Assembly: GCA_007693915.1 (NCBI GenBank)
Contig: RECS01000109.1
Coordinates: 1-64,000, forward strand
Direction of reading: 5' to 3'
Length of the DNA stretch: 64,000 nucleotides
Source of the DNA: Saprospirales bacterium
GTDB lineage: Bacteria; Bacteroidota; Bacteroidia; Chitinophagales; Saprospiraceae
The notes under the pieces were generated by a model, which searched no databases, was not told where the DNA came from, and saw only the letters and a list, made by a program, of their open reading frames with translations. Positions 29,653-45,314 of this stretch are shown piece after piece. How positions within the stretch are numbered: position 1 is the first letter of the stretch; the number at the start of each line of letters is the position of its first letter. The position numbers and the translations under genes are program-made.

Positions 29653-31172
29653 GCTTTTTTTCTAAATTTTACAAACCAACCACTTACGTCTAATATCTTT
29701 TTATCCCTCATCGCCTGAATGGTAAGAAACAGACCTATAGGAAACAGAATGATTTCTCCCAACCATGCTGAAAGCGCCGAATTAATGGTACCTGCGTCGT
29801 TCATTTCTTTAAATACTGTAAACAGAACAATATACAAGGTAAAAAACAGGATAGCCACCAAAAGTGGATAACCAAATCCACCTTTTCTGATGATTGCACC
29901 CATAGGAGCTCCAATAAAAAGAAAAATAATCACCACCGCAGCAAAGGCAAACTTCCTGTGCTTTTCATAAATGTGCCTTCTCATTTCTCTGGAAGTAGAG
30001 GATACCGACTGTGTAGCGGCGTTTAGCTGCAGATTATGCGTTTGAATAAAGCCCACTGCCTGAGTGTACATCCTTTTTCTCTGCTCAATAGGAAAACGCT
30101 CAGCAAAGGTGTTGACCGAATCCACAGGTTTGAGTTCCATCGTCCTGTATCGCTGGGCAATATTCCGCCCCTCAATATTCCTTCGTGCACCTTCAGTGGT
30201 GGTATCTAGGATTCTCATTTCCTGATTGATCTGCGGTTCGATTTGGTTTTCGTCTTCCTCATCCTCATCTTTTGCGGATTCCGGTATTTTTGATCTGGGT
30301 AAAAAAGGATGAAGCACCTTTGCCTTAGCACCGGTCATCACCACTTGCATAGAGTCAATAGTCTCATTGAGCTGGCCTACCGTTAGCATCCTCCTGTGTG
30401 TTTTGAATCGCTCCTCATCCGTTCTCTGAAATTCAAAAGCAGAAAGATCAAAAGCTATCTGATACTCGCTAAAACTTGTAGTGAGGAAGGGCTTAAATGA
30501 CCTACCATCAGCGGGGAGATCCTGATATTGTGTTCCATTATACAGTTTCATAATCAGGCTCAAACCATCGCCTGATAAAAACATCTCGCCGGAATCAGCC
30601 CGCATCATTTTCAAAATACCCGATCTGATTTCTGAATTATCGTAAATCAAAACATCCTTTATCCCTCTACCATCCGGCATAACTTCACTCACCCTTAGTG
30701 TATAACCAGTAAATTCATGATTAAAAACACCGGGCTCAAGAGCATTGGATGGCTGATGCTGCCTTATATCATAAAGACGTGAGAAGAACTTGAGATTAGC
30801 AACCGGAATCAAATTATTAGAACAATAAAAAGAAAAACCCGCAAGACCGATTCCAAAAAATATCAGTGGAAGCATTATGCGCATTAGCGAGACACCACTT
30901 GACTTTATAGTTGCCAATTCATAACGCTCTCCGAGGTTTCCAAACAACATTACTGAGGAAAGTAAGATAGCAATGGGTAAGGCCATTGGAATAATGGTAA
31001 TGGAGAGGTACATAACCATTTCAATGATCATAAAAAAACCAACCCCTTTGCCCATGATATCGTCGATATACAGCCAAAAAAACTGCATAACCAACACCAC
31101 CAAAGCAATGAAAAAGGCTGCCAGGAAAGGTGCTATAAACTGGCTGACTATGTATTTATCTAAAATTTTCAC
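29649..31172 (-). CDS. LptF/LptG-family lipopolysaccharide export permease
   Basis: 507 aa. YjgP/YjgQ permease: three N-terminal membrane helices ('LDKYIVSQFIAPFLAAFFIA', 'MVMYLSITIIPMALPIAILL', 'SSGVSLMRIMLPLIFFGIGL'), a large periplasmic part (about 130-395), and three C-terminal helices ('AFAAVVIIFLFIGAPMGAII' and after). The E. coli members are about 360 aa; the extra 140 residues are in the periplasmic part, including an acidic stretch ('KDEDEEDENQ'), as often in Bacteroidota. It would carry LPS from LptB2FG to LptC. LptF or LptG cannot be told apart here. Confidence 0.9.
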   Translation of the reverse strand: MKILDKYIVSQFIAPFLAAFFIALVVLVMQFFWLYIDDIMGKGVGFFMIIEMVMYLSITIIPMALPIAILLSSVMLFGNLGERYELATIKSSGVSLMRIMLPLIFFGIGLAGFSFYCSNNLIPVANLKFFSRLYDIRQHQPSNALEPGVFNHEFTGYTLRVSEVMPDGRGIKDVLIYDNSEIRSGILKMMRADSGEMFLSGDGLSLIMKLYNGTQYQDLPADGRSFKPFLTTSFSEYQIAFDLSAFEFQRTDEERFKTHRRMLTVGQLNETIDSMQVVMTGAKAKVLHPFLPRSKIPESAKDEDEEDENQIEPQINQEMRILDTTTEGARRNIEGRNIAQRYRTMELKPVDSVNTFAERFPIEQRKRMYTQAVGFIQTHNLQLNAATQSVSSTSREMRRHIYEKHRKFAFAAVVIIFLFIGAPMGAIIRKGGFGYPLLVAILFFTLYIVLFTVFKEMNDAGTINSALSAWLGEIILFPIGLFLTIQAMRDKKILDVSGWFVKFRKKA

Positions 31173-31193
31173 TAAATATAGCTAAAGTTCTTG

Positions 31194-31201
31194 CAAAGAT
31201 A
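31194..31201 (-). promoter_or_regulatory. promoter -7 box (TATCTTTG) of the LptF/G gene
   Basis: Minus-strand TATCTTTG (plus-strand CAAAGATA) fits TAnnTTTG, 21 bp before the permease ATG, within the 60-bp gap after the TlpA-like gene. Confidence 0.55.
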
Positions 31202-31232
31202 AGCAGCCAAAATATATCAGCTAGGAAAAAGC

Positions 31233-32669
31233 TTACTCACCGGTTTCAGCTTGCTCCATATTCACAGGCCCCTCTTTATTATCCATAAACAGCGGTAAGA
31301 CTTCAGAGAGTTGCTGAGCAGAAAGACGCTTTGAAAGAATTTTTTTATCCTCATCTAAAACAAAAATCAGCGGTGTAGTTCTAACATTATACAACACACT
31401 GAATCTCGATCTGTGAAAAGGGTCAACCAAATTTAACATTAAGTCTGTCCCCTCCGTTTTATCCATATACTCCCAGCATGTATCCACCTCGTCGGTGAAT
31501 TTAGTACAAATAGTCACCACTCCAACCCCTTTGTCAGACCATTCTCTGATAAAATCAATTATCTGCGGCGTATATCGTCTGCAATGCCCACAATCAGGTC
31601 TCCAAAAGTACAAGACCGTATACTCATAATCAAGATCATGCAATCTAACCCTTTGACCATCACGCTTTTGAACGGTAATATCAGGTGCTGTTTTACCAAT
31701 CAGTGTAGGACGTATTGCATCTGCATTCTCTATAATGCGCTGTAGCTGCTCTTCACCTACCCACCAAGCTCTGCCTTCCCGATAGTATTCATCGACCAGG
31801 TGAACATAGACCGCATCCATTCCAATTATTTTACTCCTGGCATATTCATTCAGATAATGAGCTAAATAAAATCTAAAAACAGCTGGACTTTCTTCCATTT
31901 GACCCAGAATATAATCCAGACTAACTTTAATTGAGTCCGGATGTCTTGATGTTAACTGTTCAATATATTGATTGACCTTTGAGAACATCACTGGAGACCT
32001 GAAAAGTCGCTCATCAGTTAGGTCAACGTTGTCAAAAAAATGCTTTTTGTAATACTTAAACCGCTCTCTTCTAACCTCTTCCTCAGTACCCTCGAATTCA
32101 GGAACAAATGGTTCTTTATTTCCCTTCAAAATAGCTCCTACCAAACCACCATCAAAAGTTTCGATAATTTCCGATTGCTTCGCCAATACCTCACTATTGA
32201 TATCCTCAAGCTCTTTTTCTATTCGTCTTACTCTTCTCTCTGAAGCTGACTCCCGTTCCTCATTGAGCTCCGCTGTTTTTTTCCTTTGTTGATCCAAAAA
32301 AGACAAGTATTCGTAAAAGGCACTGTTTTGAGGAGAGCCTGAAAATCGAACAGTATTTACAAAATCCTCTTCATTAGCTTTTGCAGAAAAGTGCATTTCA
32401 TCATTATCGACCAGCAATTGAAAAAAGGTTCTCTCAGGACTCCTCACCCCTATATACATGCCCGGGTCTAATGCCTCATCACCCTCAAAAATAAAATTCC
32501 CTGTAGTTGACACAGCAGTATCTGCCATAAATTGCCTGTTTCCATGATAGTATGCCAAAAACAAAGTATCCCCCTCATAATTCTCGAGCTGAAATTCAAT
32601 CTTGTAGCCCTCTTGTGCAAAAAGAAAGGGACCCAAAAGAAAACACAATAATGTTATTATTAGCCTCAT
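31233..32669 (-). CDS. TlpA-like thioredoxin-fold protein with N-terminal DUF4369/DUF5106-like region
   Basis: 478 aa. Signal peptide (MRLIITLLCFLLGPFLFAQ). Residues about 22-125 resemble the DUF4369 beta domain ('ENYEGDTLFLAYYHGNRQFM'); a coiled, charged helix (128-165) and helical region follow, like DUF5106. The C-terminal domain (about 330-465) is thioredoxin-like: 'IGKTAPDITVQKRDGQRVRL', then 'WRPDCGHCRRYTP' with a CGHC active site, and 'RTTPLIFVLDEDKKI' with the cis-Pro. It should act as a periplasmic thiol-disulfide reductase. It is upstream of the LptF/G gene on the same strand. Confidence 0.85.
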   Translation of the reverse strand: MRLIITLLCFLLGPFLFAQEGYKIEFQLENYEGDTLFLAYYHGNRQFMADTAVSTTGNFIFEGDEALDPGMYIGVRSPERTFFQLLVDNDEMHFSAKANEEDFVNTVRFSGSPQNSAFYEYLSFLDQQRKKTAELNEERESASERRVRRIEKELEDINSEVLAKQSEIIETFDGGLVGAILKGNKEPFVPEFEGTEEEVRRERFKYYKKHFFDNVDLTDERLFRSPVMFSKVNQYIEQLTSRHPDSIKVSLDYILGQMEESPAVFRFYLAHYLNEYARSKIIGMDAVYVHLVDEYYREGRAWWVGEEQLQRIIENADAIRPTLIGKTAPDITVQKRDGQRVRLHDLDYEYTVLYFWRPDCGHCRRYTPQIIDFIREWSDKGVGVVTICTKFTDEVDTCWEYMDKTEGTDLMLNLVDPFHRSRFSVLYNVRTTPLIFVLDEDKKILSKRLSAQQLSEVLPLFMDNKEGPVNMEQAETGE

Positions 32670-32782
32670 ATATATATTGTTGGTTTAAACAAATACTCAA
32701 ACAGAATCATAAACGATGAAATCCCGGCTATGTTTTTATTAAACAGCACAATCATTTAAAATTACAGGAAGTATTCCACTTC

Positions 32783-32864
32783 TTGGTTGAAGGTTGAATA
32801 TGGTTGAATGTGGTTGAAGGTTGATCCTTCGACGCCGCTCAGGACAACGTCCTTCGACGCCGCT
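32783..32864. repeat. TTGAAGGTTGAA and CCTTCGACGCCGCT direct repeats
   Basis: GGTTGAA recurs at about 7-13 bp intervals in 32785-32823. CCTTCGACGCCGCT occurs at 32826-32839 and 32851-32864, separated by CAGGACAACGT. A third and fourth copy are at 33186-33237. Confidence 0.6.
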
Positions 32865-32980
32865 ATTAGATTTGCTCAACAACCTACAAGGTGCTTGGAG
32901 ACCTTATAGGTATTTAGTGTTGTGTAAGTGTTAAAATTTCCTTGGTTAAATTAGTATTAGATGGCCAAGTGGGCATGCTT

Positions 32981-33011
32981 AACCTGTAGGGTTTTGAAAA
33001 CCCTGCAGGTT
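32981..33011. repeat. 31-bp inverted repeat (hairpin)
   Basis: AACCTGTAGGGTTTT and AAAACCCTGCAGGTT pair over 15 bp with one G-T wobble around a single central G. There is no T-run after it on either strand, so it is more like a REP or small transposable palindrome than a terminator. Confidence 0.6.
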
Positions 33012-33185
33012 TGCCGGGCTGGCAAAGACCAGAATCTTGATCAAACCCCACAAGTTATGAGTTTTTGGTGATAGAAACCTTTTTCGACCGTTAATATGAA
33101 AAAAATTTGTGTGTAAACACACTGGGAAGTACTTGCTAAAATTTTTTAAAAAATGTGGTTATTTTACTTGGTTTTATCTTAGAAT

Positions 33186-33237
33186 GCTCAGGACAACGTC
33201 CTTCGATGCCGCTAGGGGATCGCCCTTCGGCGCCGCT
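33186..33237. repeat. further copies of the CTTCGRYGCCGCT repeat
   Basis: GCTCAGGACAACGT followed by CCTTCGATGCCGCT (33186-33213) repeats 32838-32864 almost exactly; CCCTTCGGCGCCGCT (33223-33237) is a more diverged copy. Confidence 0.6.
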
Positions 33238-33518
33238 CACATCGGCTGCGCTCTGCACGGAGCAGGGCAAGTAGTTGAAGGTTGAAGAGTTGAAAGTTGA
33301 AAAATGTGTTAATGGTTCATATTATTCCTCCCTCGGCTTGGTAGCAAAACCTCCCTCCAGATCGAAATTACCCGAAGAACAACATAAAAAATTAATGTTA
33401 CAAAACGGTAAACCCTATTAAGGGATGTACATACAGATTTACTACACATCCACTTTCAACTTTCTCAGTTAAAAAGATACCAGTCTTTTACGGACATCTT
33501 TATAACTCATTGATTTTC

Positions 33519-33541
33519 TATATATATATATATATATATAT
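33519..33541. repeat. TA dinucleotide microsatellite
   Basis: Eleven TA units in a row, followed by TCACATATATATG. It lies in non-coding DNA about 350 bp upstream of the first lipoprotein gene. Confidence 0.9.
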
Positions 33542-33866
33542 CACATATATATGCAAAAAATACCCTTCTAAAACTTGTCTCGGAATTTAAAAACACAGTA
33601 ATATTGTAAGGATTTAAAAACTCGAATTTATTTTTAATTATTATCCCTAATTCATAAAATGATTTCCAAATCGCCATACAAAAACAAAACAGAAACTTTC
33701 TACGGCACAGAACAGCCCAATATCTTCTGTCCCTTTCTTTTGTATGGACGAGCTGGGTTTTATGAACGGTATTAGTTGAAAGTGAAAGTATTAGCTTCTA
33801 TTTGTTTTAGGTATTATTTAAAATCCCTTATTCAGAAGCACCCTCGTCATTTTTTTTGACTACTCT

Positions 33867-34344
33867 ATAATCATTTTTAAAAACTTATACCAATGAAAAC
33901 AATTAATAAATTTTTCTATAGTGCCCTAATCCTATCAATTTTTTCCCTTTTATTTGTATCTTGTGAAAAAGAATCTATTCATATGAATACCCAAATTGAC
34001 GAAATGCAGTTGCAAATCTCAGAAATCAGGTCATCATCTGCAGTTGATTCTTTGTTCAGGTTTCATTTAAACCATCTTGCTGATATGTTCAATAATGCAA
34101 ATGATGCCTCAAATGGTGATTTAGAATTGTTGCTAGAATCTCTTGATACCCTTTCCAGTTCAGCCGCATTTACTGTATTGGATAACTCGGGTTTGATAAA
34201 TGTTACCCAATTGGAAAATGCAATCAATCATACTGCCTACTATGAAGATTTGCTATTGCTTTCCTACTCCCAGGAGGATATAGAAAACATTGTCAATATA
34301 GAGGCAGGTGATTTGCAGGAATTATTTGGACGACCATTCTGGGG
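33867..34344 (+). repeat. 478-bp block identical to 35686-36163 (copy 1)
   Basis: Read base by base, this block has no mismatch to 35686-36163 (offset 1819). It covers 26 bp of 5' flank and the first 452 bp of the lipoprotein gene. Identity stops abruptly at 34345. The flanks and downstream genes of the two cassettes are clearly diverged. Confidence 0.95.
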
Positions 34345-34489
34345 AGAAGATTGTGATTATGTATCAGAAGAACCTGTTGGCATGCCGGATGATAAGTGTT
34401 ATATTCTACATGTTGGTTGTCGAAAATATCGTTTTTGGATTGGATTTGGCTCTACCTATCAATATGTAACTGAGGTTGACTGTCCCTAA
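33893..34489 (+). CDS. lipoprotein with Cys-containing C-terminal tail (cassette 1)
   Basis: 198 aa. Lipoprotein signal peptide with lipobox 'LFVSC', followed by EKES, a charged +2 region like the surface-export signals of Bacteroidota lipoproteins (inference). Residues 30-150 are predicted helical without known domain. The tail after residue 150 holds four Cys ('EDCDYV', 'KCYILHVGCRKYRFWIGFG', 'VDCP'). The first 150 residues are identical to the paralog at 35712; the tail is only partly alike. 29 bp upstream of a CarboxypepD_reg-like gene, probably one operon. No function is known to me. Confidence 0.75.
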   Translation: MKTINKFFYSALILSIFSLLFVSCEKESIHMNTQIDEMQLQISEIRSSSAVDSLFRFHLNHLADMFNNANDASNGDLELLLESLDTLSSSAAFTVLDNSGLINVTQLENAINHTAYYEDLLLLSYSQEDIENIVNIEAGDLQELFGRPFWGEDCDYVSEEPVGMPDDKCYILHVGCRKYRFWIGFGSTYQYVTEVDCP

Positions 34490-34518
34490 GGAAACTGAAT
34501 AAATAAAGAACCTATTAA

Positions 34519-35436
34519 ATGGCGGTGAAGATTTGCATTTTATTAATTTTCGGATTCTACATACTGGATTTACCTTCCCAAAACACTCTAATCCAGGGTA
34601 AAGTGGTTGACCATGACGGCCAACCACTTTACCTTGTTTTGGTTTATAATGCTGATTTAGGAATAGGGGCATACACAGAGGAAAACGGTCATTTTAAAAT
34701 CAATACAGACAAACAACCTTCGGAACTGGAAGTATTCGCATTAGGGTTTCTTCGCAAAAATGTAGTGATTGAAAGTCAAAACAGCTTTTTAAAAATAGAA
34801 TTGGCTAAACTAGCGTACGAGTTGGAAGAAATAAGGGTCTTTCCTTGTCCAAAAGTTGAATTCACCATGGGTATAGATCCAAGAAATGAGAAAATTGTAG
34901 AATTTGGTGGACCCTTCAATATTAGTTATCAAGCCGGTACGTCATTTCCTACACACTATGGACAAGAAATTACCGCTGTGGAGGTACTAGTGATAAACCC
35001 CAAACTTCAAAGAGCTAAATTCCGATTGAGAATTTATTCAATTGACAGCCTCGGTAAACCCAATACAGATTTGTTGTTGCAGAACGTAATTGTAAGCGTT
35101 CCGGGATGGAGGCAAAAACGTGCAACACGAATCGACCTAAATGATTATAATTTGCGTAGTCCTGATACCGGAATTTTAGTAGCTATGGAGTGGTTGCCCA
35201 GTGAAAACAATGCTCAGAGAACTACTGGGCGTAATGCTATTGGACAGAAAGTTGAAAGTCATTGGGCCATTCCACGTTTGGGATTAATAAGAACGAGGAA
35301 AAATCCAGATTTCAAAATGTGGAGTAAAATAGATGAAAGGGAGTGGGGTGAATCCAGCCCTCCCATTATGAATTCAAAGGATTCGGATGAAGTATATTTA
35401 CCAGTCATCAGGGTGCACCTTTTGGATTGTGAGTAA
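34519..35436 (+). CDS. secreted CarboxypepD_reg-like protein (cassette 1)
   Basis: 305 aa with a signal peptide (MAVKICILLIFGFYILDLPSQ). Residues about 24-100 match a carboxypeptidase-regulatory-like (CarboxypepD_reg) beta sandwich: 'IQGKVVDHDGQPLYLVLVYN', 'GAYTEENGHFKI'. The rest contains 'FRLRIYSIDSLGKPNTDLLL' and 'GILVAMEWLP', a beta domain seen in other Bacteroidota surface proteins. It ends 'VHLLDCE', as does its paralog at 36332. No T9SS domain. Probably works with the lipoprotein encoded just upstream; function unknown. Confidence 0.72.
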   Translation: MAVKICILLIFGFYILDLPSQNTLIQGKVVDHDGQPLYLVLVYNADLGIGAYTEENGHFKINTDKQPSELEVFALGFLRKNVVIESQNSFLKIELAKLAYELEEIRVFPCPKVEFTMGIDPRNEKIVEFGGPFNISYQAGTSFPTHYGQEITAVEVLVINPKLQRAKFRLRIYSIDSLGKPNTDLLLQNVIVSVPGWRQKRATRIDLNDYNLRSPDTGILVAMEWLPSENNAQRTTGRNAIGQKVESHWAIPRLGLIRTRKNPDFKMWSKIDEREWGESSPPIMNSKDSDEVYLPVIRVHLLDCE

Positions 35437-35685
35437 GCAGGTTGCAGAGATTTTCTACAACTAATATTTTACATAGTAGAACAATTTTTGGTGAATGTGT
35501 GAAATATTGTTTCTCGAAACAGGACCCATGCAATTCTACTCTCCATTCTGATTGTATGCATAAGGTTTGATTTAGGAAAATGCTTATTTGGTAATGAAAA
35601 TTTTTGCTTCAATTTGTGTAAAGTACAATTTTAAATTCTTAATTCAAACTTACCAGAAACACCCTATTATTTTTTAGACTATTCA

Positions 35686-36163
35686 ATAATCATTTTTAAA
35701 AACTTATACCAATGAAAACAATTAATAAATTTTTCTATAGTGCCCTAATCCTATCAATTTTTTCCCTTTTATTTGTATCTTGTGAAAAAGAATCTATTCA
35801 TATGAATACCCAAATTGACGAAATGCAGTTGCAAATCTCAGAAATCAGGTCATCATCTGCAGTTGATTCTTTGTTCAGGTTTCATTTAAACCATCTTGCT
35901 GATATGTTCAATAATGCAAATGATGCCTCAAATGGTGATTTAGAATTGTTGCTAGAATCTCTTGATACCCTTTCCAGTTCAGCCGCATTTACTGTATTGG
36001 ATAACTCGGGTTTGATAAATGTTACCCAATTGGAAAATGCAATCAATCATACTGCCTACTATGAAGATTTGCTATTGCTTTCCTACTCCCAGGAGGATAT
36101 AGAAAACATTGTCAATATAGAGGCAGGTGATTTGCAGGAATTATTTGGACGACCATTCTGGGG
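35686..36163 (+). repeat. 478-bp block identical to 33867-34344 (copy 2)
   Basis: Second copy of the perfectly identical block; see the entry at 33867. The first difference after it is at 36164. Confidence 0.95.
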
Positions 36164-36302
36164 TGTAGATTGTGATTATGTATCTGATCCTGTAGGTACT
36201 GATGGTAATTGTTATATTTTATTTGAAGGTTGTCGAAAATATCGTTTTTGGATCGGATTTGGTCCGACGTTTCAAATAATGGCTGCGGTCGAATGTCCTT
36301 AA
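35712..36302 (+). CDS. lipoprotein with Cys-containing C-terminal tail (cassette 2)
   Basis: 196 aa, paralog of the gene at 33893. Signal peptide, lipobox 'LFVSC' and the helical part to residue 150 are identical in protein and DNA. The tail differs ('VDCDYVSDPVGTDGNCYILF', 'GCRKYRFWIGFGPTFQIM', 'VECP') but keeps all four Cys and 'GCRKYRFWIGFG'. The gene is followed after 29 bp by the second CarboxypepD_reg-like gene. The pattern suggests a conserved anchor and a variable exposed part. Confidence 0.75.
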   Translation: MKTINKFFYSALILSIFSLLFVSCEKESIHMNTQIDEMQLQISEIRSSSAVDSLFRFHLNHLADMFNNANDASNGDLELLLESLDTLSSSAAFTVLDNSGLINVTQLENAINHTAYYEDLLLLSYSQEDIENIVNIEAGDLQELFGRPFWGVDCDYVSDPVGTDGNCYILFEGCRKYRFWIGFGPTFQIMAAVECP

Positions 36303-36331
36303 GAAAACTGAACAAAGTAAAAACCTATTAA

Positions 36332-37288
36332 ATGGCGGTGAAAATTTGGTTGTTAATTATTTTCGGATTCTTCGTACTGGATTTAACTGCACAGACCACA
36401 CTAATTCAGGGTAAAGTGGCCGACCAGAATGGTCAACCACTTTACCTTACTTTGGTTTATAATGCTGATTTAGGAATAGGCGCTTACACAGATGAAAGGG
36501 GTTTCTTCTTTATCGAATCAGACAAAGTCATACCCGAACTGGAAGTATTTGCATTAGGTTATATGCGAGAAAGAGTAAATACAAAAGTTGATTCCAGTTT
36601 TATTACTATAAAACTAAAAAAACTGATCTATGATCTAAAGGAAATAGAAATCCATCCCTGTCCTAAATCAGAAATTACCATGGGTTTGGATTTGGAATCA
36701 ATTGAGCATAATTTAATGCGCTTAAGTCCGACACATGGATTTAATTATCAGGTAGGAATGTCATTCCCTACACGCTATGGACAGGAAATAACAGCTGTAG
36801 AGGTACATGCCATAAATCCCGGAATTCGAAGAACTACTTTTCGATTGAGGATTTTTGAATTGGACAGTAGCGGAATGCCCGGTAATGATTTATTGCTTGA
36901 AAACCTGATTGTAAGCGTTCCGGGCCTGAGGAATAAACGTCCAACACTGATCGATCTAAAGGATTATAATTTGAGAAGTCCGGATTCCGGGATTTTTGTT
37001 GCAGTGGAATGGTTACCTATGGAAAATAATACCTACAGGACTACCGGTCGTCATCCTTCAGGAAGCAGAGGTAAAAGGCACACGACTCTTCCAATTTTAA
37101 GATTAATTCGGACTGAGAAAAATCCGGATTTTAAAATGTGGCGAAAAAGAGATGAAGGAGAATGGTATCAAACTCATCCACAAATAAAAAAAAAGTGGTT
37201 AGAACTCAACCCTCACCTGGCAAGTAAGGAGGACCAGGAGCTAACAAATTTTCCGGCAATCAAAGTGCATCTGTTGGATTGTGAGTAA
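36332..37288 (+). CDS. secreted CarboxypepD_reg-like protein (cassette 2)
   Basis: 318 aa, paralog of the gene at 34519. Signal peptide (MAVKIWLLIIFGFFVLDLTAQ), CarboxypepD_reg-like part ('IQGKVADQNGQPLYLTLVYN', 'GAYTDERGFFFI'), then 'TFRLRIFELDSSGMPGNDLL' and 'GIFVAVEWLP'; the end is again 'VHLLDCE'. By eye the two proteins agree at roughly half to two thirds of positions, so they diverged well before the lipoprotein genes were made identical. The paralog has a shorter stretch near the C-terminus. Confidence 0.72.
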   Translation: MAVKIWLLIIFGFFVLDLTAQTTLIQGKVADQNGQPLYLTLVYNADLGIGAYTDERGFFFIESDKVIPELEVFALGYMRERVNTKVDSSFITIKLKKLIYDLKEIEIHPCPKSEITMGLDLESIEHNLMRLSPTHGFNYQVGMSFPTRYGQEITAVEVHAINPGIRRTTFRLRIFELDSSGMPGNDLLLENLIVSVPGLRNKRPTLIDLKDYNLRSPDSGIFVAVEWLPMENNTYRTTGRHPSGSRGKRHTTLPILRLIRTEKNPDFKMWRKRDEGEWYQTHPQIKKKWLELNPHLASKEDQELTNFPAIKVHLLDCE

Positions 37289-37653
37289 GCAGGTTGCAGA
37301 GATTTTCTACAGCTTATATTTTACTTAGAAGAACAATTTTTGGTGAATGTGTGAAATATTGTTTCTTGAAAAAGGGTCCATGCAATTCTATTCTCCATTC
37401 TGGTTGTATGCATAAGGTGGGTTTTATGAAAAGGCTTATTTGGAAATGAAACTTTGTTAGCTGCAATTGAATAGGATGTTGATTATAAGTGTTTTTCTAA
37501 TCCGATTATGGCAAGTGCAAAATATATTCCTATAGTATGTACAAGATATCAACAAACTACCTTTAACTAATTATCCAAGCTGCTTGTGAGGTTTATTATT
37601 TCTTTAAAGCGTCTATCAAATAAGGGTCCATGTAAAAGGCAATCCCAATAAAA
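37289..37653. other. spacer homologous to the flank of cassette 1
   Basis: No gene. The first about 160 bp (GCAGGTTGCAGAGATTTTCT onward to about 37460) match 35437-35610 after cassette 1 with few differences, so the duplicated unit includes this 3' flank. The remaining 190 bp show nothing recognisable. Confidence 0.6.
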
Positions 37654-38432
37654 CTAATCCCCTCCCTCCAATGATTGAACATTCAATCTGTTTTGGAAGT
37701 GGTCCGTATTATACCCTAAAGAAAGGATACTTGTCAGCTCACTGGGACTTTCTATCTCTTGCCGTCTAATCAAATCCTGAAAGATATTCAATACTGAGAT
37801 GGCATTCAATTCAGACAGCGAAAAAACCATTTCGGTCAAAGGTCTTTGATCCATTCTATTGGGCCATAAAAAACAAACAGAATAAGGATTCGCTGCGTTG
37901 ACATCCATCAACGCTACAAAAACCATTTCACCGGGTGGGTAATTAGCTACTGAATCTGTGCAGCTGAGCAAACCTGAAACTACATGTACATCACCGTATT
38001 CCAAATGCCAGTTGTAAATTTGATTATAAGCCTCTTCCATCACTCTAAAAGCACCTATATGCATATCATTAAACTGATGAATAGCATCCTCTTCCCCCCA
38101 AAACTCCGTCAATCCAATAGGCATTTTAAACGGTTTACCCTCTCCGTATGGAGGTCTATGACCAAAATTGGTAATGGCGGCACTGCCATGAGCCATCCAC
38201 ACTACTCCACTGCCATCCTTAGTCGGTGCAAGAATCAAATCATCTATCATTTTCAAATCACTTTTTCGGCAAAACCTAACATCTCAGTTTTCTTGGAAAC
38301 ACCCAACAACAACTCAAGAAGAGAATCTAAATCCACCGAAAGTAACCAAATAAATACAACAAGCAAGGCTTCTAATATTGCTATTGAAGGCAGGGTTCGG
38401 GTAAATACTAAGAGATCTTCTGAACCATTAGA
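37654..38432 (-). pseudogene. frameshifted, start-less copy of the membrane-anchored protein at 42403-43209
   Basis: The 200-residue C-terminal frame (37654-38256) is a close paralog of the intact protein at 42403; 'VVWMAHGSAAITNFGHRPP' is identical. Its only start is a TTG at 38256. Upstream, in another frame, the minus strand encodes 'VVFIWLLSVDLDSLLELLLG', matching the membrane anchor 'LLFVWLLTVNMEPWLAVLLG' of the paralog, up to 'KTEMLGFAEKVI' and then a stop just before 'KMIDDL'. That frame reaches a stop at 38433 without an ATG. So the copy has a frameshift near 38257-38270 and lacks a start; a sequencing error could explain the shift but not the missing start. Confidence 0.8.
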
Positions 38433-38564
38433 TTAAGGGATTTCTGTTTTGTTATTAAGATTTTTGTCAAGCATACAGACTCTTAAAGATATGTTAAATT
38501 CACAGTTTTTTCCCAGGTCAAACAATTTATGTATTAACATTGTCCAAATTAAAATAAAAACTAT

Positions 38565-38597
38565 GCAATCTACAAGCAATCTACAAGCAATCTACAA
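38565..38597 (+). repeat. three 11-bp tandem repeats (GCAATCTACAA) at a gene start
   Basis: Three exact copies of GCAATCTACAA directly after an ATG at 38563. Because 11 is not a multiple of 3, copy number decides whether that ATG is in frame with the following lipoprotein signal peptide. With three copies it stops after 12 codons (TAA at 38599); one or four copies would be in frame. Confidence 0.9.
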
Positions 38598-38651
38598 GTA
38601 AATGGTTAAAACTAACATTTCTTACTTTGATTCTTTTTTCAATTAATTCTT

Positions 38652-40166
38652 GTGAAAAAAAAGTTTGAATATTCCGAACTAAAAACAGACCTTTCAGAGT
38701 TCTCCAGTGACAGATCAGGTATGATTTCTATAACAAATGGAATTTTAAATTTTCCAAATCTAGAAAGTCTAGAGTATAGTTATAACTCCATCAAAAATAA
38801 TGAAATCAACTATGATGATTTTATTAACTATCATTTCGAAAATGGTTTTAAACCTAAAATTCTAACCGATGAAATTATTAATAATAACCCATCGGTTTTA
38901 ACACTAGACTCCTCTTTTGTAACGAACCCTTATGAAGGAGAAGGAGAAGGAGGTGAAGATGTCATTGACCTTGAAGATGATAGACTTATTGCTGATTTAT
39001 CATTTGCATCATTATTAAACTTTAGACACGAGGTTATAGTAGAAAATCGCCTATACAAGTATACCTATAATGGTCTATTTCATGGAGAAGTATCTGATTC
39101 TACTACTATCCGATTTGAATCAAGTAATAACCACTATAGCACACATCAACCAGGATCAGATGGTGAAACACAATTAATTTCTAATGGACTTGTAAGTTGG
39201 TTCATACCAAACCATGATGATCCTCCAGTTGCTGAATTATGTGCGCCTTATCCATGTCCTCCACCAATAGTAATTGATCCACCACAAGTCTTTGCTAATT
39301 GCGGAGACAATAAGGATTATCCAGAAGCTCTTCCAAATTGCATTTCATACGGAAACTTCGGCAAAATTTTTGGACCTAATTTAGTTTGTTTCCAGTATTG
39401 GTCTACTAGGAATAGAAGGATTAAAAACAAAGCATGGGCAATGGATTTTAAACTAATTAGTTCTGTAGGCTATAAAGTAAAAACTCAAAGTAAAAAAAAT
39501 TTCTTAGGTATTACTTGGTGGTCAAAAAACAATGCTGAAGTAAGTCAGCTCTACAAAGGGATTGAAGTTGGTCAGATTGTTTTCAGTCATCCTAATTTTC
39601 CTTCACCAAATAACTTTGAATTTAAACATCAACTTAGATATGATGGAATAACATATAATCTCCAAACTGGTGATGTCGTTCATGTCAACGATCCCTTGAT
39701 GAGAGATCTTTTTAAGGATTGGCCAGTACCTAATATTTCGCCAACTATCGAGATTTATTTGCCTGATCGATTTTTTGCGGATGATCTTCTCTATGAGGAT
39801 TTTGTATCTAGTGATCAGTTAAATTCAGCAATTAAATTAATTGCGAAACAAGCATTTAATTTTTTAAAAAATAAATTAAACAAGGAATTTGGGTCAGAAG
39901 ATGTATCTATTTTTTTACCAAACTCCAATAAAGACGATATTATATTTTATTATGTGCAAAATGAAAAAACCAAACAAAATGCAAATAGATTAAGAAGTAG
40001 TTTTCATTTCTCAACAGCTGTAATTAGTTGGAAGGACAAATATATTCCATCTGGCTTTAAACCAGCAATACACCCTAAAAAAGTAGATATGCTCTTTTAT
40101 GGTTACGGTCGTCACGCGTGTAATGATTATCAAGGATCTAGAATACATTTACTAATGGAAAATTAA
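38652..40166 (+). CDS. unknown lipoprotein body, out of frame with its own signal peptide
   Basis: The open frame of 504 codons (GTG at 38652) has no signal peptide of its own. In the neighbouring frame directly upstream (38603-38654), the DNA encodes 'WLKLTFLTLILFSINSC', a typical lipoprotein leader ending in a lipobox Cys, then 'EKKV' and stop. The switch is in an A8 run; with seven A the leader would read on as 'SCEKKFEYSELK'. The body has acidic 'EGEGEGGEDVIDLEDD' and Pro-rich 'PYPCPPPIVIDPP' parts and no domain I know. The 1.5-kb frame is intact, so decay, if any, is recent. It overlaps the next gene by 1 bp (TAATG). Confidence 0.65.
   Translation: MKKKFEYSELKTDLSEFSSDRSGMISITNGILNFPNLESLEYSYNSIKNNEINYDDFINYHFENGFKPKILTDEIINNNPSVLTLDSSFVTNPYEGEGEGGEDVIDLEDDRLIADLSFASLLNFRHEVIVENRLYKYTYNGLFHGEVSDSTTIRFESSNNHYSTHQPGSDGETQLISNGLVSWFIPNHDDPPVAELCAPYPCPPPIVIDPPQVFANCGDNKDYPEALPNCISYGNFGKIFGPNLVCFQYWSTRNRRIKNKAWAMDFKLISSVGYKVKTQSKKNFLGITWWSKNNAEVSQLYKGIEVGQIVFSHPNFPSPNNFEFKHQLRYDGITYNLQTGDVVHVNDPLMRDLFKDWPVPNISPTIEIYLPDRFFADDLLYEDFVSSDQLNSAIKLIAKQAFNFLKNKLNKEFGSEDVSIFLPNSNKDDIIFYYVQNEKTKQNANRLRSSFHFSTAVISWKDKYIPSGFKPAIHPKKVDMLFYGYGRHACNDYQGSRIHLLMEN
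38655..38662 (+). repeat. A8 homopolymer at the signal peptide-body junction
   Basis: TGTGAAAAAAAAG: eight A directly after the lipobox Cys codon. Loss of one A joins the lipoprotein signal peptide to the 504-codon body. Confidence 0.85.
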
Positions 40167-41239
40167 TGCTTTTAATGAATGTATATTTGTTTCAATTAAG
40201 AACGATCGTGATTACTTTTATTTTATCACATTTCCTAACTATGCATTATAGTTTTTACAATGCTCAGGTCACTTTCCCATACACAATCGAATCGGAGAAA
40301 AATGTGAAATATCAACCATTGGACAACGGCACAGTAGTCAGCCAACCTGGGTGGAACTGGACAAATTTTTTTATTGAAATAGACTTTCCATTTTCTATCC
40401 CTCAATTTGAATCCGGACCGGTAATGCTTGCAGTTTTTTCCATCCCGGACATTGGAATTCAGCTATTATTCCTCAATTCTGAAGGTGACATCGGTGATGT
40501 GCTAATTCCTTATAATATGCTACTTAAAGATATTAAAAATTATGATTCAAATAAAGAGTCCATTGTCAGATACGATATTCAGGGAGAAATAGGTCAAAGG
40601 GTTTTTATTTTAGAGTTTTTTAAAGTGGGTTTTGAGAATCTTGTTGGAACAATAGGTGCAACTGTAAACACAAGTTTTCAAATTAGTATTTTTGAGGATA
40701 CAGGAGAGCTAAAGATTCACTTCGGCGAGCAAAACAACAGAGAGTTGTTTGACCTAATTTTTGATCGAATCGGTTCGGGACCCCGAATATCGTTAAGCTT
40801 AGGCTTAGGATCATCAGGGAGTGGTAATATACCTGTGGTTTCAGGTTTACTTTCAGGTAATGTTGAAGCCCCCTTTATAGTAGAATACTACCAATCATAT
40901 ATCCCCCCGGAAAACCTGGATGGTTTATTAGATGATCCTGTGGAGGGTACTCTTTATCGTTTTATACCGACTCCAACAAACACAAACAACCACACCATCA
41001 ACAATCATTTTTCCATATCGCCTAATCCTGCTTCTGATTACTTGAATGTTTTTTGGAAAGACAGTAGTTTAGGACAGGTAAAATACTCAATTTTTTCAGT
41101 AGATGGGAGGAATATAATTTCAGGAACCTTAGATGAACCACACCATAGAATTGAAACCAGTTCATTAAACACTGGGATCTATATCATTGAAGTCAGTTCA
41201 GAAAGTACAACTCAAGTTCATAATTTCTTAAAGAAATAA
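40166..41239 (+). CDS. secreted protein with T9SS type A sorting domain
   Basis: 357 aa. N-terminal hydrophobic segment ('TIVITFILSHFLTMHYSFYN') as signal peptide; there are three ATGs close together, so the exact start is uncertain. The middle (about 45-270) is beta-rich with no known domain. The C-terminus is a type A sorting domain: 'FSISPNPASDYLNVFW', 'YSIFSVDGRNIISGTL', 'LNTGIYIIEVSS', 'VHNFLKK'. It overlaps the preceding stop (TAATG), so it is coupled to the lipoprotein body gene and may be a partner of it. Confidence 0.8.
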   Translation: MLLMNVYLFQLRTIVITFILSHFLTMHYSFYNAQVTFPYTIESEKNVKYQPLDNGTVVSQPGWNWTNFFIEIDFPFSIPQFESGPVMLAVFSIPDIGIQLLFLNSEGDIGDVLIPYNMLLKDIKNYDSNKESIVRYDIQGEIGQRVFILEFFKVGFENLVGTIGATVNTSFQISIFEDTGELKIHFGEQNNRELFDLIFDRIGSGPRISLSLGLGSSGSGNIPVVSGLLSGNVEAPFIVEYYQSYIPPENLDGLLDDPVEGTLYRFIPTPTNTNNHTINNHFSISPNPASDYLNVFWKDSSLGQVKYSIFSVDGRNIISGTLDEPHHRIETSSLNTGIYIIEVSSESTTQVHNFLKK

Positions 41240-41298
41240 GTATTATCGAAAATGACTTATCTTTATCCTGCGAACAAAACCTGTAATTTGCTTTTTTG

Positions 41299-41868
41299 AT
41301 GAAAAACCTACAACAAATAATTTTCGCAATCATTCTCACTGCAGCAACTTTATTTTCAGGTTCTTGTATAAGTCAAAACTCCAAAGATTCTATCCTTCCT
41401 CCCCTTGAAAACTCTTTCCGTCTCAACATAGTTAACCCAAGCGCAGAATGGCACTTTGTACGGAATGAAAATGCCCTTTATGTACTAAAAGTGGGTCTTA
41501 ATTATTACGGTGAAATAATACTTGGGTATCCATCGTCAATTGAATGGCAATTTAAGCCAATGGCATCAATAAGCCACAGATGGTATTATAATAGACTGAA
41601 GAGATTAAATAATGGACGGATAGTTAAGAAAAACAGTGGGAACTATGTCTCATTGAAATTTATGGCACTTGGACCCGATATAATTTCAACAGACTCTAAG
41701 AATAGTGACTTTATTGCATCATTAGGTCCGCAATGGGGCATGCAAAGAAAATATGGCAAGTCACTTTCCTTCAAACTGGAAATAGGGCCTGTTGTTTATT
41801 GGAATAGTGATAATAAAGTAGGGGTAGAGTTAAGTGGAGGTATAGGACTGGGGTTTATAATAAAATAA
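41299..41868 (+). CDS. hypothetical envelope protein, possible small beta-barrel
   Basis: 189 aa from the ATG at 41299 (a TTG directly before it is less likely). Signal peptide 'MKNLQQIIFAIILTAATLFSGSC'-like (positions 1-23); the Cys may make it a lipoprotein, but the lipobox is weak. The rest has alternating strands ('YVLKVGLNYYGEIILGY', 'WQFKPMASISHRWYYN', 'GVELSGGIGLGFIIK') and an aromatic-hydrophobic end, which suggests an outer-membrane barrel. 59 bp after the T9SS protein gene, same strand. Function unknown. Confidence 0.6.
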   Translation: MKNLQQIIFAIILTAATLFSGSCISQNSKDSILPPLENSFRLNIVNPSAEWHFVRNENALYVLKVGLNYYGEIILGYPSSIEWQFKPMASISHRWYYNRLKRLNNGRIVKKNSGNYVSLKFMALGPDIISTDSKNSDFIASLGPQWGMQRKYGKSLSFKLEIGPVVYWNSDNKVGVELSGGIGLGFIIK

Positions 41869-42054
41869 TAGTTTAATCATTGAATTATTAATCTCAACTT
41901 AGCAATTGACTCAAAGTCTAATTACATACAGAACAAAATAGAAAAAAGGCAGCTACAATTAAGTATTACAAACTGTAAATTAAGCACTTAATTTAAAAAA
42001 GGATTGACTTGAATCTGCCCACTGAATTCCTTTAAATTATTCTACAGAACTTAT

Positions 42055-42062
42055 TAATTTTG
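42055..42062 (+). promoter_or_regulatory. possible promoter -7 box (TAATTTTG) in the spacer
   Basis: TAATTTTG followed by CAAAA fits TAnnTTTG. It points to the small ORF 78 bp downstream or to a non-coding transcript. No clear -33 element. Confidence 0.35.
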
Positions 42063-42139
42063 CAAAAAACAGATAAACTCTAAAGAATTAACATGCCTCA
42101 TCTCAGTATTTCATACAATTTATAATTACAACTTAAAAA

Positions 42140-42241
42140 TTGAGGAAAAAACTAGGTTCACGTCAAGGTGCACAAGGCGTGAGGGTATCACCAAGTCAAT
42201 TGCGCAGATTGAGGGCTTTAGAAAAAAAAGGAAGGTTTTAA
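42140..42241 (+). CDS. possible 33-codon basic small protein
   Basis: TTG-started frame encoding a protein that begins 'RKKLGSRQGAQGVRV' after the start and ends 'QLRRLRALEKKGRF'. It is strongly basic, and a stop codon lies two codons upstream, so the frame cannot be longer. It may be a real small protein, or the last remnant of a longer gene (the end looks like a helical C-terminus). It is supported only by the promoter-like box upstream and protein-like composition. Confidence 0.3.
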   Translation: MRKKLGSRQGAQGVRVSPSQLRRLRALEKKGRF

Positions 42242-42272
42242 TTTTCAAAACAATTTTAACTAATAACCATTT

Positions 42273-42306
42273 CTTTGCGAATCCTTTGCGCCCTTGCGAC
42301 TTTGCG
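42273..42306. repeat. cluster of four CTTTGCG-like units
   Basis: CTTTGCG at 42273-42279 and 42284-42290, CCTTGCG at 42292-42298 and CTTTGCG at 42300-42306, spaced 8-11 bp. Runs of this kind recur between genes in Bacteroidota genomes (from memory); the role is unknown. Confidence 0.6.
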
Positions 42307-42402
42307 AGAAAAAAACTTTAAGACTTTTCTAATTTTTGTCAATTACACAGAAATCTTAAATAAGCACATTTATATTCGATCTGAAAATATTTTGAAAGTA
42401 AA

Positions 42403-43209
42403 TCAATCCCCCATCTCCAACCTTTGAAAATTCACTCTAGTCTCAAAGTAAGTGGTGTTATATCCAAGCGAGAGTATGCCGGGCAATTCACGCGGTTTCT
42501 CTACTCCTTTTCGGGTGATCAAATCCTCAAAAATATTCAAGCCTGAAATGGAATTCAGCTCAGCCAAAGAAAACACCAATTCATTCAACGGCCTTTGATC
42601 TCCATCATTTGCCCACAAAAAAGTAAGTGAATATGGGCTTTCAGAATCCAAATTCATTATGGCAACAAAAATATTTTCACCGGGTGGATAATCCCTTATC
42701 GAATCAATGCAGCTGATCATGCCCGAAACGACATGCATATCCCCGTACTCCTCATGCCAGACAAATATTTGATTATAGACCTCCTCGAATATCCTGAATG
42801 CCGATACATCCATATTGCTGAATTGAAGCACCATATCATCATCCGACCAAAACTCCGTTAAGCCAAGAGGCATCCTAAATGGATTCCCATTTTCAAACGG
42901 AGGTCTATGACCAAAATTGGTAATGGCTGCACTGCCATGAGCCATCCACACTACTCCACTGCCATCCTTAGCAGGGGCAAGAATCAAATCATCTATCATT
43001 TTCAGCTCTCCAGTCTCAGCACTGCAGATTATTTCACTTTTTTCGGGTGACCCCAAAAGCACCGCCAGCCAAGGCTCCATATTGACTGTGAGTAACCAGA
43101 CAAATAGCAGCAGCAAGGCAATCAAAATCACTACATATCGCAAACTGGAAGATTTTCGACCGGAATCACCCCTTTTGTGACTTCCGTGATTCATCCTGAA
43201 TTTTACCAT
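42403..43209 (-). CDS. membrane-anchored protein of unknown function, intact paralog of 37654-38432
   Basis: 268 aa from the ATG at 43209; this start is chosen because a TATATTTG box stands 14 bp upstream, which would lie inside a longer reading. A basic cytoplasmic N-terminus ('NHGSHKRGDSGRKSSS') is followed by one membrane helix ('YVVILIALLLLFVWLLTV') and an outside domain of about 200 residues with 'VVWMAHGSAAITNFGHRPP', 'GLTEFWSDDD', 'YPPGENIFVAIMN' and 'LSLGYNT'. The family is unknown to me. It is divergent from the paa genes. A frameshifted second copy lies 4 kb away. Confidence 0.72.
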   Translation of the reverse strand: MVKFRMNHGSHKRGDSGRKSSSLRYVVILIALLLLFVWLLTVNMEPWLAVLLGSPEKSEIICSAETGELKMIDDLILAPAKDGSGVVWMAHGSAAITNFGHRPPFENGNPFRMPLGLTEFWSDDDMVLQFSNMDVSAFRIFEEVYNQIFVWHEEYGDMHVVSGMISCIDSIRDYPPGENIFVAIMNLDSESPYSLTFLWANDGDQRPLNELVFSLAELNSISGLNIFEDLITRKGVEKPRELPGILSLGYNTTYFETRVNFQRLEMGD

Positions 43210-43223
43210 TTTTCTTTTTTTTA

Positions 43224-43231
43224 CAAATATA
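43224..43231 (-). promoter_or_regulatory. promoter -7 box (TATATTTG) of the 42403 gene
   Basis: Minus-strand TATATTTG (plus-strand CAAATATA) fits TAnnTTTG, 14 bp upstream of the ATG at 43209, and decides the start of this gene. Confidence 0.6.
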
Positions 43232-43366
43232 CAGAAAACAAGGTAGTGCTTAGCAACACAATACAATCAAGATCAAAGGTCTCAACAATAAAACTGCAAA
43301 ACTCTATCCCGAATTATGAAAGTGATATGATAGTCCTTAATTTTACGCTCTTAAAGAAAAAAACAT

Positions 43367-44146
43367 ATGAAATACATTTCTGTCGAAACAAATGGGAATT
43401 ACTGCATCCTGAAATTAAACAGGCCGGAAAAGTTCAATAGTTTTATACGCCCAATGGCATTGGAATTGCAAAAGGCTTTGGATGAATGCGAAAGTAATCC
43501 TGAAGTCAGGGCTATCCTTCTAACTGCTGAGGGCAAAGCCTTCTGTGCCGGTCAGGACCTCAATGAAGCCGTTGATCCTGCACTAAAGGTGGAGCTTGAT
43601 AAAATCATCACTGAACATTACAATCCGCTCATCACCCGATTAACCAAAATAGAAAAGCCGATAGTTTGTGCTGTTAATGGTGTAGCTGCCGGAGCTGGGG
43701 CGAATGTAGCCCTCGCCTGCGATATCGTCATTGCGACTGAAAGTGCATCGTTTATTCAGGCCTTCAGTATGATAGGGCTAATACCCGATTCAGGGGGCAC
43801 ATGGATTCTACCCAGATTAGTTGGTTATGCACGGGCAAAAGCGCTGATGATGACAGCTGAAAAAGTGAGTGCGATTGATGCGGAAAAAATGGGAATGATC
43901 TACAAAGCAGTACCGGATGAAAACTTTATTGCCGAAGCCAAAAAGCTAACAGCAAAGCTGGCCAATATGCCTACAAGAGGACTGGGTCTTACCAAAAGAG
44001 CCCTAAATCTAGGCATGAACAATAGTCTTCAAGAACAACTGGTTCACGAGTGGAGACTACAATCAGAGGCGGGCAGTACAGACGACTTCAAAGAAGGTGT
44101 AGCCGCTTTTTTAGAAAAAAGAAAACCTGAATTTACAGGAAAATAA
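43367..44146 (+). CDS. paaG: enoyl-CoA hydratase/isomerase, PaaG type
   Basis: 259 aa, crotonase fold. 'LNRPEKFNSF' near the N-terminus, the oxyanion-hole motif 'AFCAGQDLNE', 'AVNGVAAGAGANVALACD', and 'MIGLIPDSGGTWILPRLVG', which fits PaaG rather than general enoyl-CoA hydratases (Asp in place of the second catalytic Glu). PaaG isomerises 1,2-epoxyphenylacetyl-CoA to oxepin-CoA in aerobic phenylacetate breakdown. Neighbours PaaH and PaaI types support this. The ring epoxidase genes (paaABCDE), paaZ and paaK are not in this window. Confidence 0.85.
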   Translation: MKYISVETNGNYCILKLNRPEKFNSFIRPMALELQKALDECESNPEVRAILLTAEGKAFCAGQDLNEAVDPALKVELDKIITEHYNPLITRLTKIEKPIVCAVNGVAAGAGANVALACDIVIATESASFIQAFSMIGLIPDSGGTWILPRLVGYARAKALMMTAEKVSAIDAEKMGMIYKAVPDENFIAEAKKLTAKLANMPTRGLGLTKRALNLGMNNSLQEQLVHEWRLQSEAGSTDDFKEGVAAFLEKRKPEFTGK

Positions 44147-44156
44147 AACACAACTT

Positions 44157-45314
44157 ATGAAAATAGGAATAATAGGAGCAGGAGCAATGGGTACAGGAAT
44201 AGCGCAATTAGCAGCTTTTTCCAATCACAAAGTACTGCTCTATGATGCCAATCAGGATGCACTGAACCGCTCAAGGGACAGTCTGCTGAAAATCCTGAAC
44301 CGTATGGCTGAAAAAGGCAAAATTTCAGATGCAGATGCGAAAGGGATTTTTGGAAACATTCTGTTTATTGAAAAAATGAGTACTTTTGCCAATGCAGAAA
44401 TAATTGTTGAAGCTATAGTTGAAAATCTGGAAGTCAAACAATCTGTTTTTCGAGAACTGGAAAGCATAGTAAGTGCGGATTGTATTTTGGCGACCAACAC
44501 CTCCTCACTAAGTGTTTCAGCTATTGCTGCAGCTTGTAAAAAACCGGAACGCATTGTTGGCATACATTTTTTTAATCCGGTTTTTTTAATGAAATTGGTA
44601 GAAATTATCCCGACCCTACAAACTGAGGAGTCCGTTTCGAAAAAAGCAGTAAAATGGATAAGCGACATGGGGCACCTGCCCGTAATGGCAAAGGACACCC
44701 CCGGATTTATAGTGAATCGAATAGCTCGCCCTTTTTACAGTGAAGCGCTGCGCATTCTGGACGAAGGCATTGCTGATGCTGCTACCATAGATCATGCTAT
44801 GACCACAGTTGGTGGTTTTAGAATGGGACCCTTCACCCTCATGGATTTTATCGGAAACGATGTCAACTATACCGTTACGGAGACGGTGTTCAAGGCATTT
44901 TTCTACGATCCCAGATACAAACCGTCTTTTACCCAACAGCGATTGGCTATGGCAGGCTATCTGGGCAGAAAAACCGGAAAAGGATATTACAATTATAATG
45001 AAGGAGCAGTCAAACCCGAGCCCAATACCGATCTGGAGTTGTTGAAATACATATTTGAGCGGGTTTTATTTATGCTCATCAATGAGGCAGCCGATGCACT
45101 CATGTACGGGGTGGCCTCCAGGGACGATATAGATACGGCCATGAAATACGGGGTTAACTATCCCAAGGGCTTATTGAAATGGGCGGACGAAATGGGAATT
45201 GATGACTGTGTAAATGCATTGGATGATTTGTATGATTTGTATCGCGAAGATAGATACAGATGTTCCGCTTTATTGAGAAAAATGTCTTACGACAATACCA
45301 CCTTTTATGACTAA
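44157..45314 (+). CDS. paaH: 3-hydroxyacyl-CoA dehydrogenase, PaaH type
   Basis: 385 aa. NAD-binding Rossmann motif 'GIIGAGAMGTGIAQLA' at the N-terminus, 'ATNTSSLSVSAIA', 'RIVGIHFFNPVFLMKLVEII', then the C-terminal dimer domains ('PGFIVNRIARPFYSEALRIL', 'GPFTLMDFIGNDVN', 'GRKTGKGYYNY', and a second copy near the end). It should oxidise 3-hydroxyadipyl-CoA to 3-oxoadipyl-CoA. It is shorter than the E. coli PaaH (about 475 aa). It lies 10 bp after paaG and overlaps paaI by 8 bp. Confidence 0.85.
   Translation: MKIGIIGAGAMGTGIAQLAAFSNHKVLLYDANQDALNRSRDSLLKILNRMAEKGKISDADAKGIFGNILFIEKMSTFANAEIIVEAIVENLEVKQSVFRELESIVSADCILATNTSSLSVSAIAAACKKPERIVGIHFFNPVFLMKLVEIIPTLQTEESVSKKAVKWISDMGHLPVMAKDTPGFIVNRIARPFYSEALRILDEGIADAATIDHAMTTVGGFRMGPFTLMDFIGNDVNYTVTETVFKAFFYDPRYKPSFTQQRLAMAGYLGRKTGKGYYNYNEGAVKPEPNTDLELLKYIFERVLFMLINEAADALMYGVASRDDIDTAMKYGVNYPKGLLKWADEMGIDDCVNALDDLYDLYREDRYRCSALLRKMSYDNTTFYD

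What the first reader, a model, noticed from the sequence alone, without database searches (positions are those of the whole stretch)
33867..36302. Two lipoprotein genes identical over 478 bp but with different Cys-containing tails
Seen: 33867-34344 and 35686-36163 show no mismatch on base-by-base reading, then similarity falls abruptly with substitutions and indels in the last 45 codons, while four Cys and GCRKYRFWIGFG are kept. The adjacent CarboxypepD_reg genes of the same cassettes are much more diverged. So the cassette duplication is old, but the lipoprotein 5' part has been homogenised recently. Inference: gene conversion keeps a fixed anchor and signal while the tail, perhaps paired with its own partner protein, stays variable. 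This is the layout expected for specificity-bearing surface or immunity-type proteins.
Basis: partly seen in the sequence, partly recalled or inferred. Interest (0 to 1): 0.68.

Follow-up and report, generated by a model that had tools for sequence, protein, structure and literature searches.

The report
Recombining lipoprotein with swapped tail-partner modules
Two neighbouring genes in an uncultured Saprospirales bacterium share an identical front half but have different back ends, each linked to its own partner gene, and a related species shows the same mix-and-match pattern plus leftover partner genes, which looks like the way bacteria build diverse weapon-and-antidote or recognition pairs, although the function is unproven.

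Summary
33867-34344 and 35686-36163 are a maximal 478-bp perfect repeat. It ends at codon 151, where the predicted helical domain gives way to a 4-Cys beta tail. Tails (dS 0.63) and downstream CarbopepD_reg partners (60% aa, dS 0.94) are old; the block has no substitution (synonymous sites 0/92 versus 106/198, p=6e-24). Only these two copies exist in the genome.

A congeneric MAG (Saprospirales PLM2.Bin40) shows the pattern independently. Its two paralogues on different contigs are 70% identical in the N-part, 33% in the tail and 26% in the partner. Behind one cassette lies an orphan partner, 86% identical in DNA to the other locus's partner, preceded by a decayed lipoprotein whose remnant tail matches that locus's tail. 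Relatives carry orphan or fragmentary partners without the lipoprotein. The window cassettes sit in a ~9.7-kb island absent from the nearest relative.

So the locus is a recombining module: constant lipoprotein 5' block, exchangeable tail-plus-partner unit, displaced partners left behind. This matches the logic of polymorphic effector-immunity loci (Rhs, T6SS, SitA). It belongs to none of the tested families (SitA, fulvocin C-related). The antagonism/immunity function is inferred, about 45%. The exact 478-bp identity comes from a fragmented, probably short-read, assembly.

The parts
33867..34344 (+). identical 5' block, copy 1 (26 bp leader + codons 1-151 of lipoprotein A)
   Evidence: maximal exact 478-bp match
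35686..36163 (+). identical 5' block, copy 2 (26 bp leader + codons 1-151 of lipoprotein B)
   Evidence: maximal exact 478-bp match
33893..34489 (+). lipoprotein A, 198 aa: lipobox LFVSC24, disordered linker 25-49, helical domain 50-141, beta tail with 4 Cys
   Evidence: ORF, AF2 model mean pLDDT 78
35712..36302 (+). lipoprotein B, 196 aa, same architecture, diverged tail
34346..34486 (+). variable 4-Cys tail of A (residues 152-198)
   Evidence: 73% aa identity to B tail (counted from RPFW), dS 0.63
36165..36299 (+). variable 4-Cys tail of B
34519..35436 (+). partner A: signal peptide + CarbopepD_reg_2/NTE-like domain + lectin-like jelly-roll domain
   Evidence: PF13715 45.1 bits; AF2; VIA-align Z 13-14
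36332..37288 (+). partner B, 60% identical to partner A
   Evidence: PF13715 28.0 bits, below cut-off
35437..35616 (.). non-coding segment after partner A / upstream of lipoprotein B, 88% identical to the segment after partner B
37289..37468 (.). matching segment after partner B: looks like the start of a lost third unit
33772..33892 (.). upstream region of lipoprotein A, 73% identical to 35584-35711 upstream of B (last 26 bp lie in the identical block)
32682..42416 (.). accessory island carrying both cassettes; absent from the orthologous site of the nearest relative (G004:C439)
   Evidence: window 30589-32681 and 42417-44941 are joined with only 238 bp between in L118

Best explanation
This is a modular, recombining two-gene locus. 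A constant lipoprotein front half (signal peptide, anchor, linker, helical carrier) acts as a recombination anchor, and the exchangeable unit is the lipoprotein's 4-Cys beta tail together with the partner gene just downstream. SHOWN: recent homogenisation of the 5' block in the window genome; uneven divergence in an independent genome; co-inheritance of tail type and partner type in the one informative case; displaced or orphan partner genes; location on an accessory island. INFERRED: the lipoprotein is a surface or outer-membrane effector (bacteriocin-like or contact-acting) whose tail carries specificity, and the exported CarbopepD_reg/lectin-like protein is its cognate immunity or neutralising partner. 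Relatives keep partners after losing the lipoprotein, as in effector-immunity arrays. Confidence in the modular recombination account is about 0.85; the figure given here is for the effector-immunity function.
For: 0 synonymous changes in the block versus dS 0.63 in the tail and 0.94 in the partner. G005 paralogues: N-part 70%, tail 33%, partner 26%; about 900 bp of upstream plus 5' gene at 74% identity ending before the tail. The orphan partner in G005 C89 is 86% identical in DNA to the C52 partner and preceded by a co-linear lipoprotein remnant whose tail end SDPVLCP resembles C52's SDPFPCP. Partner tree: clades A (100/100) and B (97/98) each span several genomes. Orphan or fragmentary partners in G002, G003, G004 and G005 C52. 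All six intact lipoproteins have a partner 13-90 bp downstream. Empty site in G004. The block ends at the helix/beta boundary. The same arrangement (new effector-immunity module in front, shifted-back effector 3' ends, orphan immunity genes) is described for V. cholerae T6SS (PMC5361080).
Against: No toxin domain or immunity family is recognised (Pfam, NCBIfam, PADLOC). All tails are homologous and keep a common motif, unlike classic polymorphic toxins, which swap unrelated toxin domains. More distant members of the partner family occur widely without any lipoprotein (57 of 398 family genomes), so partners may have another primary role. Only six cassettes are known. The remnant match is weak by itself (24 bits; best of 200 shuffles 25.4) and gains its weight from position, frame and co-linearity. 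Orphan partners in incomplete MAGs could be lone because of assembly breaks.
Confidence: 0.45

Rival explanations
1. The two proteins form an outer-surface binding complex (adhesion, glycan or peptide capture) in which lipoprotein tail and partner lectin-like domain vary together, for example to escape phages or follow ligands. Recombination shuffles the variable unit, and no antagonism is involved.
For: The partner's C-terminal domain models as a lectin/CBM-like jelly roll (Cwp84 lectin-like, Z 14) and its N-terminal domain as an NTE/CarbopepD_reg domain (Z 13); distant partner relatives live alone in many genomes.
Against: Orphan and decaying partner arrays and displaced modules are less expected for a stable surface complex; no SusC/D or other surface operon genes lie beside the cassettes.
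Confidence: 0.3
2. Ordinary gene conversion or unequal crossing-over between tandem paralogues of a dispensable lipoprotein cassette; the tail/partner divergence is simply what conversion has not reached, with no functional meaning.
For: The copies are 1.8 kb apart in direct orientation, ideal for conversion; the cassettes are rare (4 of 398 family genomes with a protein query) and decay often.
Against: The same 5'/3' split occurs in G005 between copies on different contigs, with the break before the tail and partners from two ancient clades; the window break coincides with a predicted domain boundary.
Confidence: 0.18
3. Assembly artefact: two moderately similar copies were given one consensus in a short-read MAG, or strains were mixed.
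For: The window genome is a 197-contig draft; its congener is a metaSPAdes-type MAG (NODE names); a 478-bp repeat exceeds short-read length.
Against: Flanks differ on both sides and all four ORFs are intact. With a single repeat edge the unit order is forced. Collapse to one consensus still requires near-identity, which flanking divergence of 20-40% would not give. The independent G005 case has no exact repeat.
Confidence: 0.06

Closest known systems
Myxobacterial SitA/SitI lipoprotein toxins (PMC8546572, PMC5562445)
   Same: Lipoprotein with family-constant N-terminal domain and polymorphic C-terminal part, encoded with a downstream partner gene on accessory DNA, several alleles per genome.
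   Different: The constant part is about 150 aa, not about 375; the tail is about 50 aa with 4 Cys and one common fold, not a nuclease; the partner is an exported CarbopepD_reg/lectin-like protein; order Saprospirales; TraAB dependence not tested.
T6SS effector displacement and orphan immunity arrays in Vibrio cholerae; Rhs and CDI orphan tips (PMC5361080)
   Same: Homologous 5' block, exchanged 3' end plus adjacent gene, older module pushed downstream with effector remnant and retained partner gene.
   Different: No secretion-system genes beside the cassette; partner not shown to be immunity.
Bacteriocin fulvocin C-related proteins (NF033852)
   Same: Lipoprotein-like N-terminus (40% over 40 aa around the lipobox and RSSS linker) and Cys-containing C-terminus; present in the same genomes.
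   Different: Different body and Cys pattern (8 or more Cys), different neighbours (membrane proteins), no hit to the family model.
CarbopepD_reg_2 (PF13715) proteins of Bacteroidota
   Same: Partner N-terminal domain belongs to this fold/family.
   Different: Extra C-terminal lectin-like domain and linkage to the Cys-tail lipoprotein.

Membership tests
SitA lipoprotein toxins | lipoprotein signal with constant N-terminal domain and variable C-terminal domain | tested here: met
   lipobox LFVSC24 by sequence; N-part 100%/70% within genomes against tail 73%/33%
SitA lipoprotein toxins | about 375-aa escort domain defining one of six families | tested here: not met
   constant part is about 150 aa including the signal peptide
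SitA lipoprotein toxins | C-terminal nuclease or other known toxin domain | tested here: inconclusive
   no Pfam or NCBIfam domain in the tail; no PDB fold match
SitA lipoprotein toxins | cognate immunity gene downstream | not testable with these tools
   a partner gene is always downstream; immunity needs an assay
SitA lipoprotein toxins | TraAB-dependent delivery | not tested
   TraA/TraB were not searched for
Bacteriocin fulvocin C-related (NF033852) | match to the family model above 35 bits | tested here: not met
   no hit for P0001/P0002 at E<=10, while G005:C84 scores 84 bits
CarbopepD_reg_2 PF13715 (partner) | score above gathering cut-off 32.2 | tested here: met
   partner A 45.1 bits, G005 C89 partner 41.1; partner B 28.0 and some others fall just below
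Displaced effector-immunity arrays (T6SS/Rhs type) | effector 3' remnant followed by a retained partner gene behind a newer complete module | tested here: met
   G005 C89: lipoprotein + partner A, then remnant (L020:3422-3601) + partner B
Displaced effector-immunity arrays (T6SS/Rhs type) | effector is toxic and partner is protective | not testable with these tools
   needs an experiment
Known anti-phage defence proteins (PADLOC) | model match | tested here: not met
   no hit at E<=0.01

The most novel reading that the evidence does not exclude
A previously undescribed Saprospirales family of lipid-anchored, Cys-tailed effectors with exported NTE/lectin-like immunity partners, diversified by recombination at a constant lipoprotein 5' block: a Bacteroidota counterpart of SitA/Rhs-type polymorphic systems in which both effector and antidote act in the envelope.
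Probability: 0.35. Interest if true: 0.75.

Novelty: new variant of a known kind. Interest (0 to 1): 0.5.

Why it matters
It gives a concrete candidate for a small, modular antagonism or recognition system in uncultured environmental Bacteroidota, found from recombination pattern alone. If the function is confirmed, it would add an envelope-acting lipoprotein effector family with an unusual partner fold. It would also show that effector displacement with orphan partner arrays extends beyond secretion-system toxins.

Tried and rejected
Extra copies of the 5' block or a different tail elsewhere in the own genome: none (the C112 hit is 45 bp of 5' leader/signal of an unrelated lipoprotein). Phage or plasmid association: no match. 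First genome-contig scan with P0001 found nothing; a profile of the four close members found only G005's records. Six-member profile over the order: extra hits cover only the signal/linker of unrelated lipoproteins. Fulvocin C relationship: similarity confined to 40 N-terminal residues, neighbours differ. PADLOC: none. Rooted tree of the N-part to prove concerted evolution: unresolved because outgroups are too distant (AU p 0.49 and 0.61), so that argument rests on the divergence contrast, not on topology. Lipoprotein Foldseek against PDB: no significant match, which does not show a new fold.

Full report
OBSERVATION. The repeat is real and exact: 33867-34344 equals 35686-36163 over 478 bp. 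Outside it the alignment falls to about 60-73% upstream, 75-80% with indels in the lipoprotein tail and about 60-75% nt (60% aa) in the partner gene. Permutation of differences and a synonymous-site comparison (0/92 against 106/198 in the partner, p=6e-24; against 12/28 in the tail, p=3e-9) exclude even divergence. Constraint on the nucleotide sequence itself is not the cause, because the same stretch is near saturation at synonymous sites against congener G005. The genome has no third copy.

ANATOMY. Each unit is: upstream region, lipoprotein, about 29 bp, partner. The lipoprotein has a lipobox (LFVSC24), a disordered linker, a confident helical domain (50-141) and a beta tail (142-198) with four Cys. 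The identical block stops in codon 151, at the start of the tail. The partner has a signal peptide, an NTE/CarbopepD_reg-like domain and a lectin-like jelly roll. A 180-bp segment after partner A recurs after partner B at 88%, which suggests a lost third unit.

COMPARISON. The family is rare: 4 of 398 family genomes with the protein query. Every intact lipoprotein (six) is followed by a partner of one clade. In G005 (Saprospirales bacterium PLM2.Bin40) two copies lie on different contigs with N-part 70%, tail 33% and partner 26% identity. Their DNA is 74% identical from about 520 bp upstream to shortly before the tail, then stops; the C52 partner instead matches (86%) an orphan partner that follows the C89 cassette. 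Just before that orphan lies a decayed lipoprotein, in frame and co-linear, ending SDPVLCP like the C52 tail SDPFPCP. So tail type B goes with partner type B at both loci, while the front half does not track partner type. Partner clades A and B are well supported. G002, G003 and G004 carry partners with no lipoprotein, and G004 and G005 C52 carry partner fragments.

LOCATION. In the nearest relative at this locus (G004:C439) the flanks at 32681 and 42417 are joined with 238 bp between, so both cassettes lie on a presence/absence island of about 9.7 kb. Polarity (gain or loss) is not resolved.

MECHANISM. Shown: recombination has recently acted on the lipoprotein 5' block in the window genome, and 5' and 3' parts have different histories in two genomes. 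Two routes fit. One is gene conversion between tandem copies. The other is integration of a tail-partner module by homology at a shared 5' block. The second also produces displaced modules with retained partners, as described for T6SS effectors in V. cholerae (PMC5361080). Inferred: the lipoprotein is an envelope-acting effector with a specificity tail and the partner its neutraliser; the retained orphan partners are the main argument. A surface-binding pair (rival 1) is the main alternative and is favoured by the lectin-like fold.

PLACE AMONG KNOWN SYSTEMS. It works like SitA or Rhs/T6SS diversifying loci but is not a member of SitA (constant-domain length not met, toxin domain not found) or of the fulvocin C-related family (no model hit; similarity limited to 40 N-terminal residues). 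PADLOC gives nothing.

CAVEATS. The genome is a 197-contig draft, so a few SNPs inside the repeat could have been collapsed. Sample size is six cassettes. The remnant is weak by score alone. A rooted tree of the N-part was uninformative. Absence of lipoproteins in incomplete MAGs may be missing data.

Noticed in passing
window 37654-38256 (-) and about 42400-43230: Two diverged copies (about 66%) of one unknown gene lie inside and at the right edge of the island; G004 has a single copy, closer to the 42.4-kb one (80% against 75%).
   Followed up: partly
window 38652-41239: Island genes of unknown function; the 40166-41239 product carries a Por_Secre_tail (T9SS) sorting domain.
   Followed up: partly
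L033:304-1008 (G005:C84), L127 (G000:C33), L135 (G000:C3), L134, L130: Fulvocin C-related bacteriocin-like genes occur in the same genus, often beside multi-pass membrane proteins; in G005:C84 the neighbour is a membrane protein with a thioredoxin-like end.
   Followed up: partly
window 32789-33270: Intergenic stretch with repeated 'CTTCGACGCCGCT..' and 'GGTTGAAGGTTGAA' motifs between the TlpA-like gene and cassette A, and an (AT)n tract near 33520.
   Followed up: no
L072:148-1017 (G015:C161): A second, lone partner gene in G015, related to its cassette partner, with no lipoprotein found upstream (contig start).
   Followed up: no
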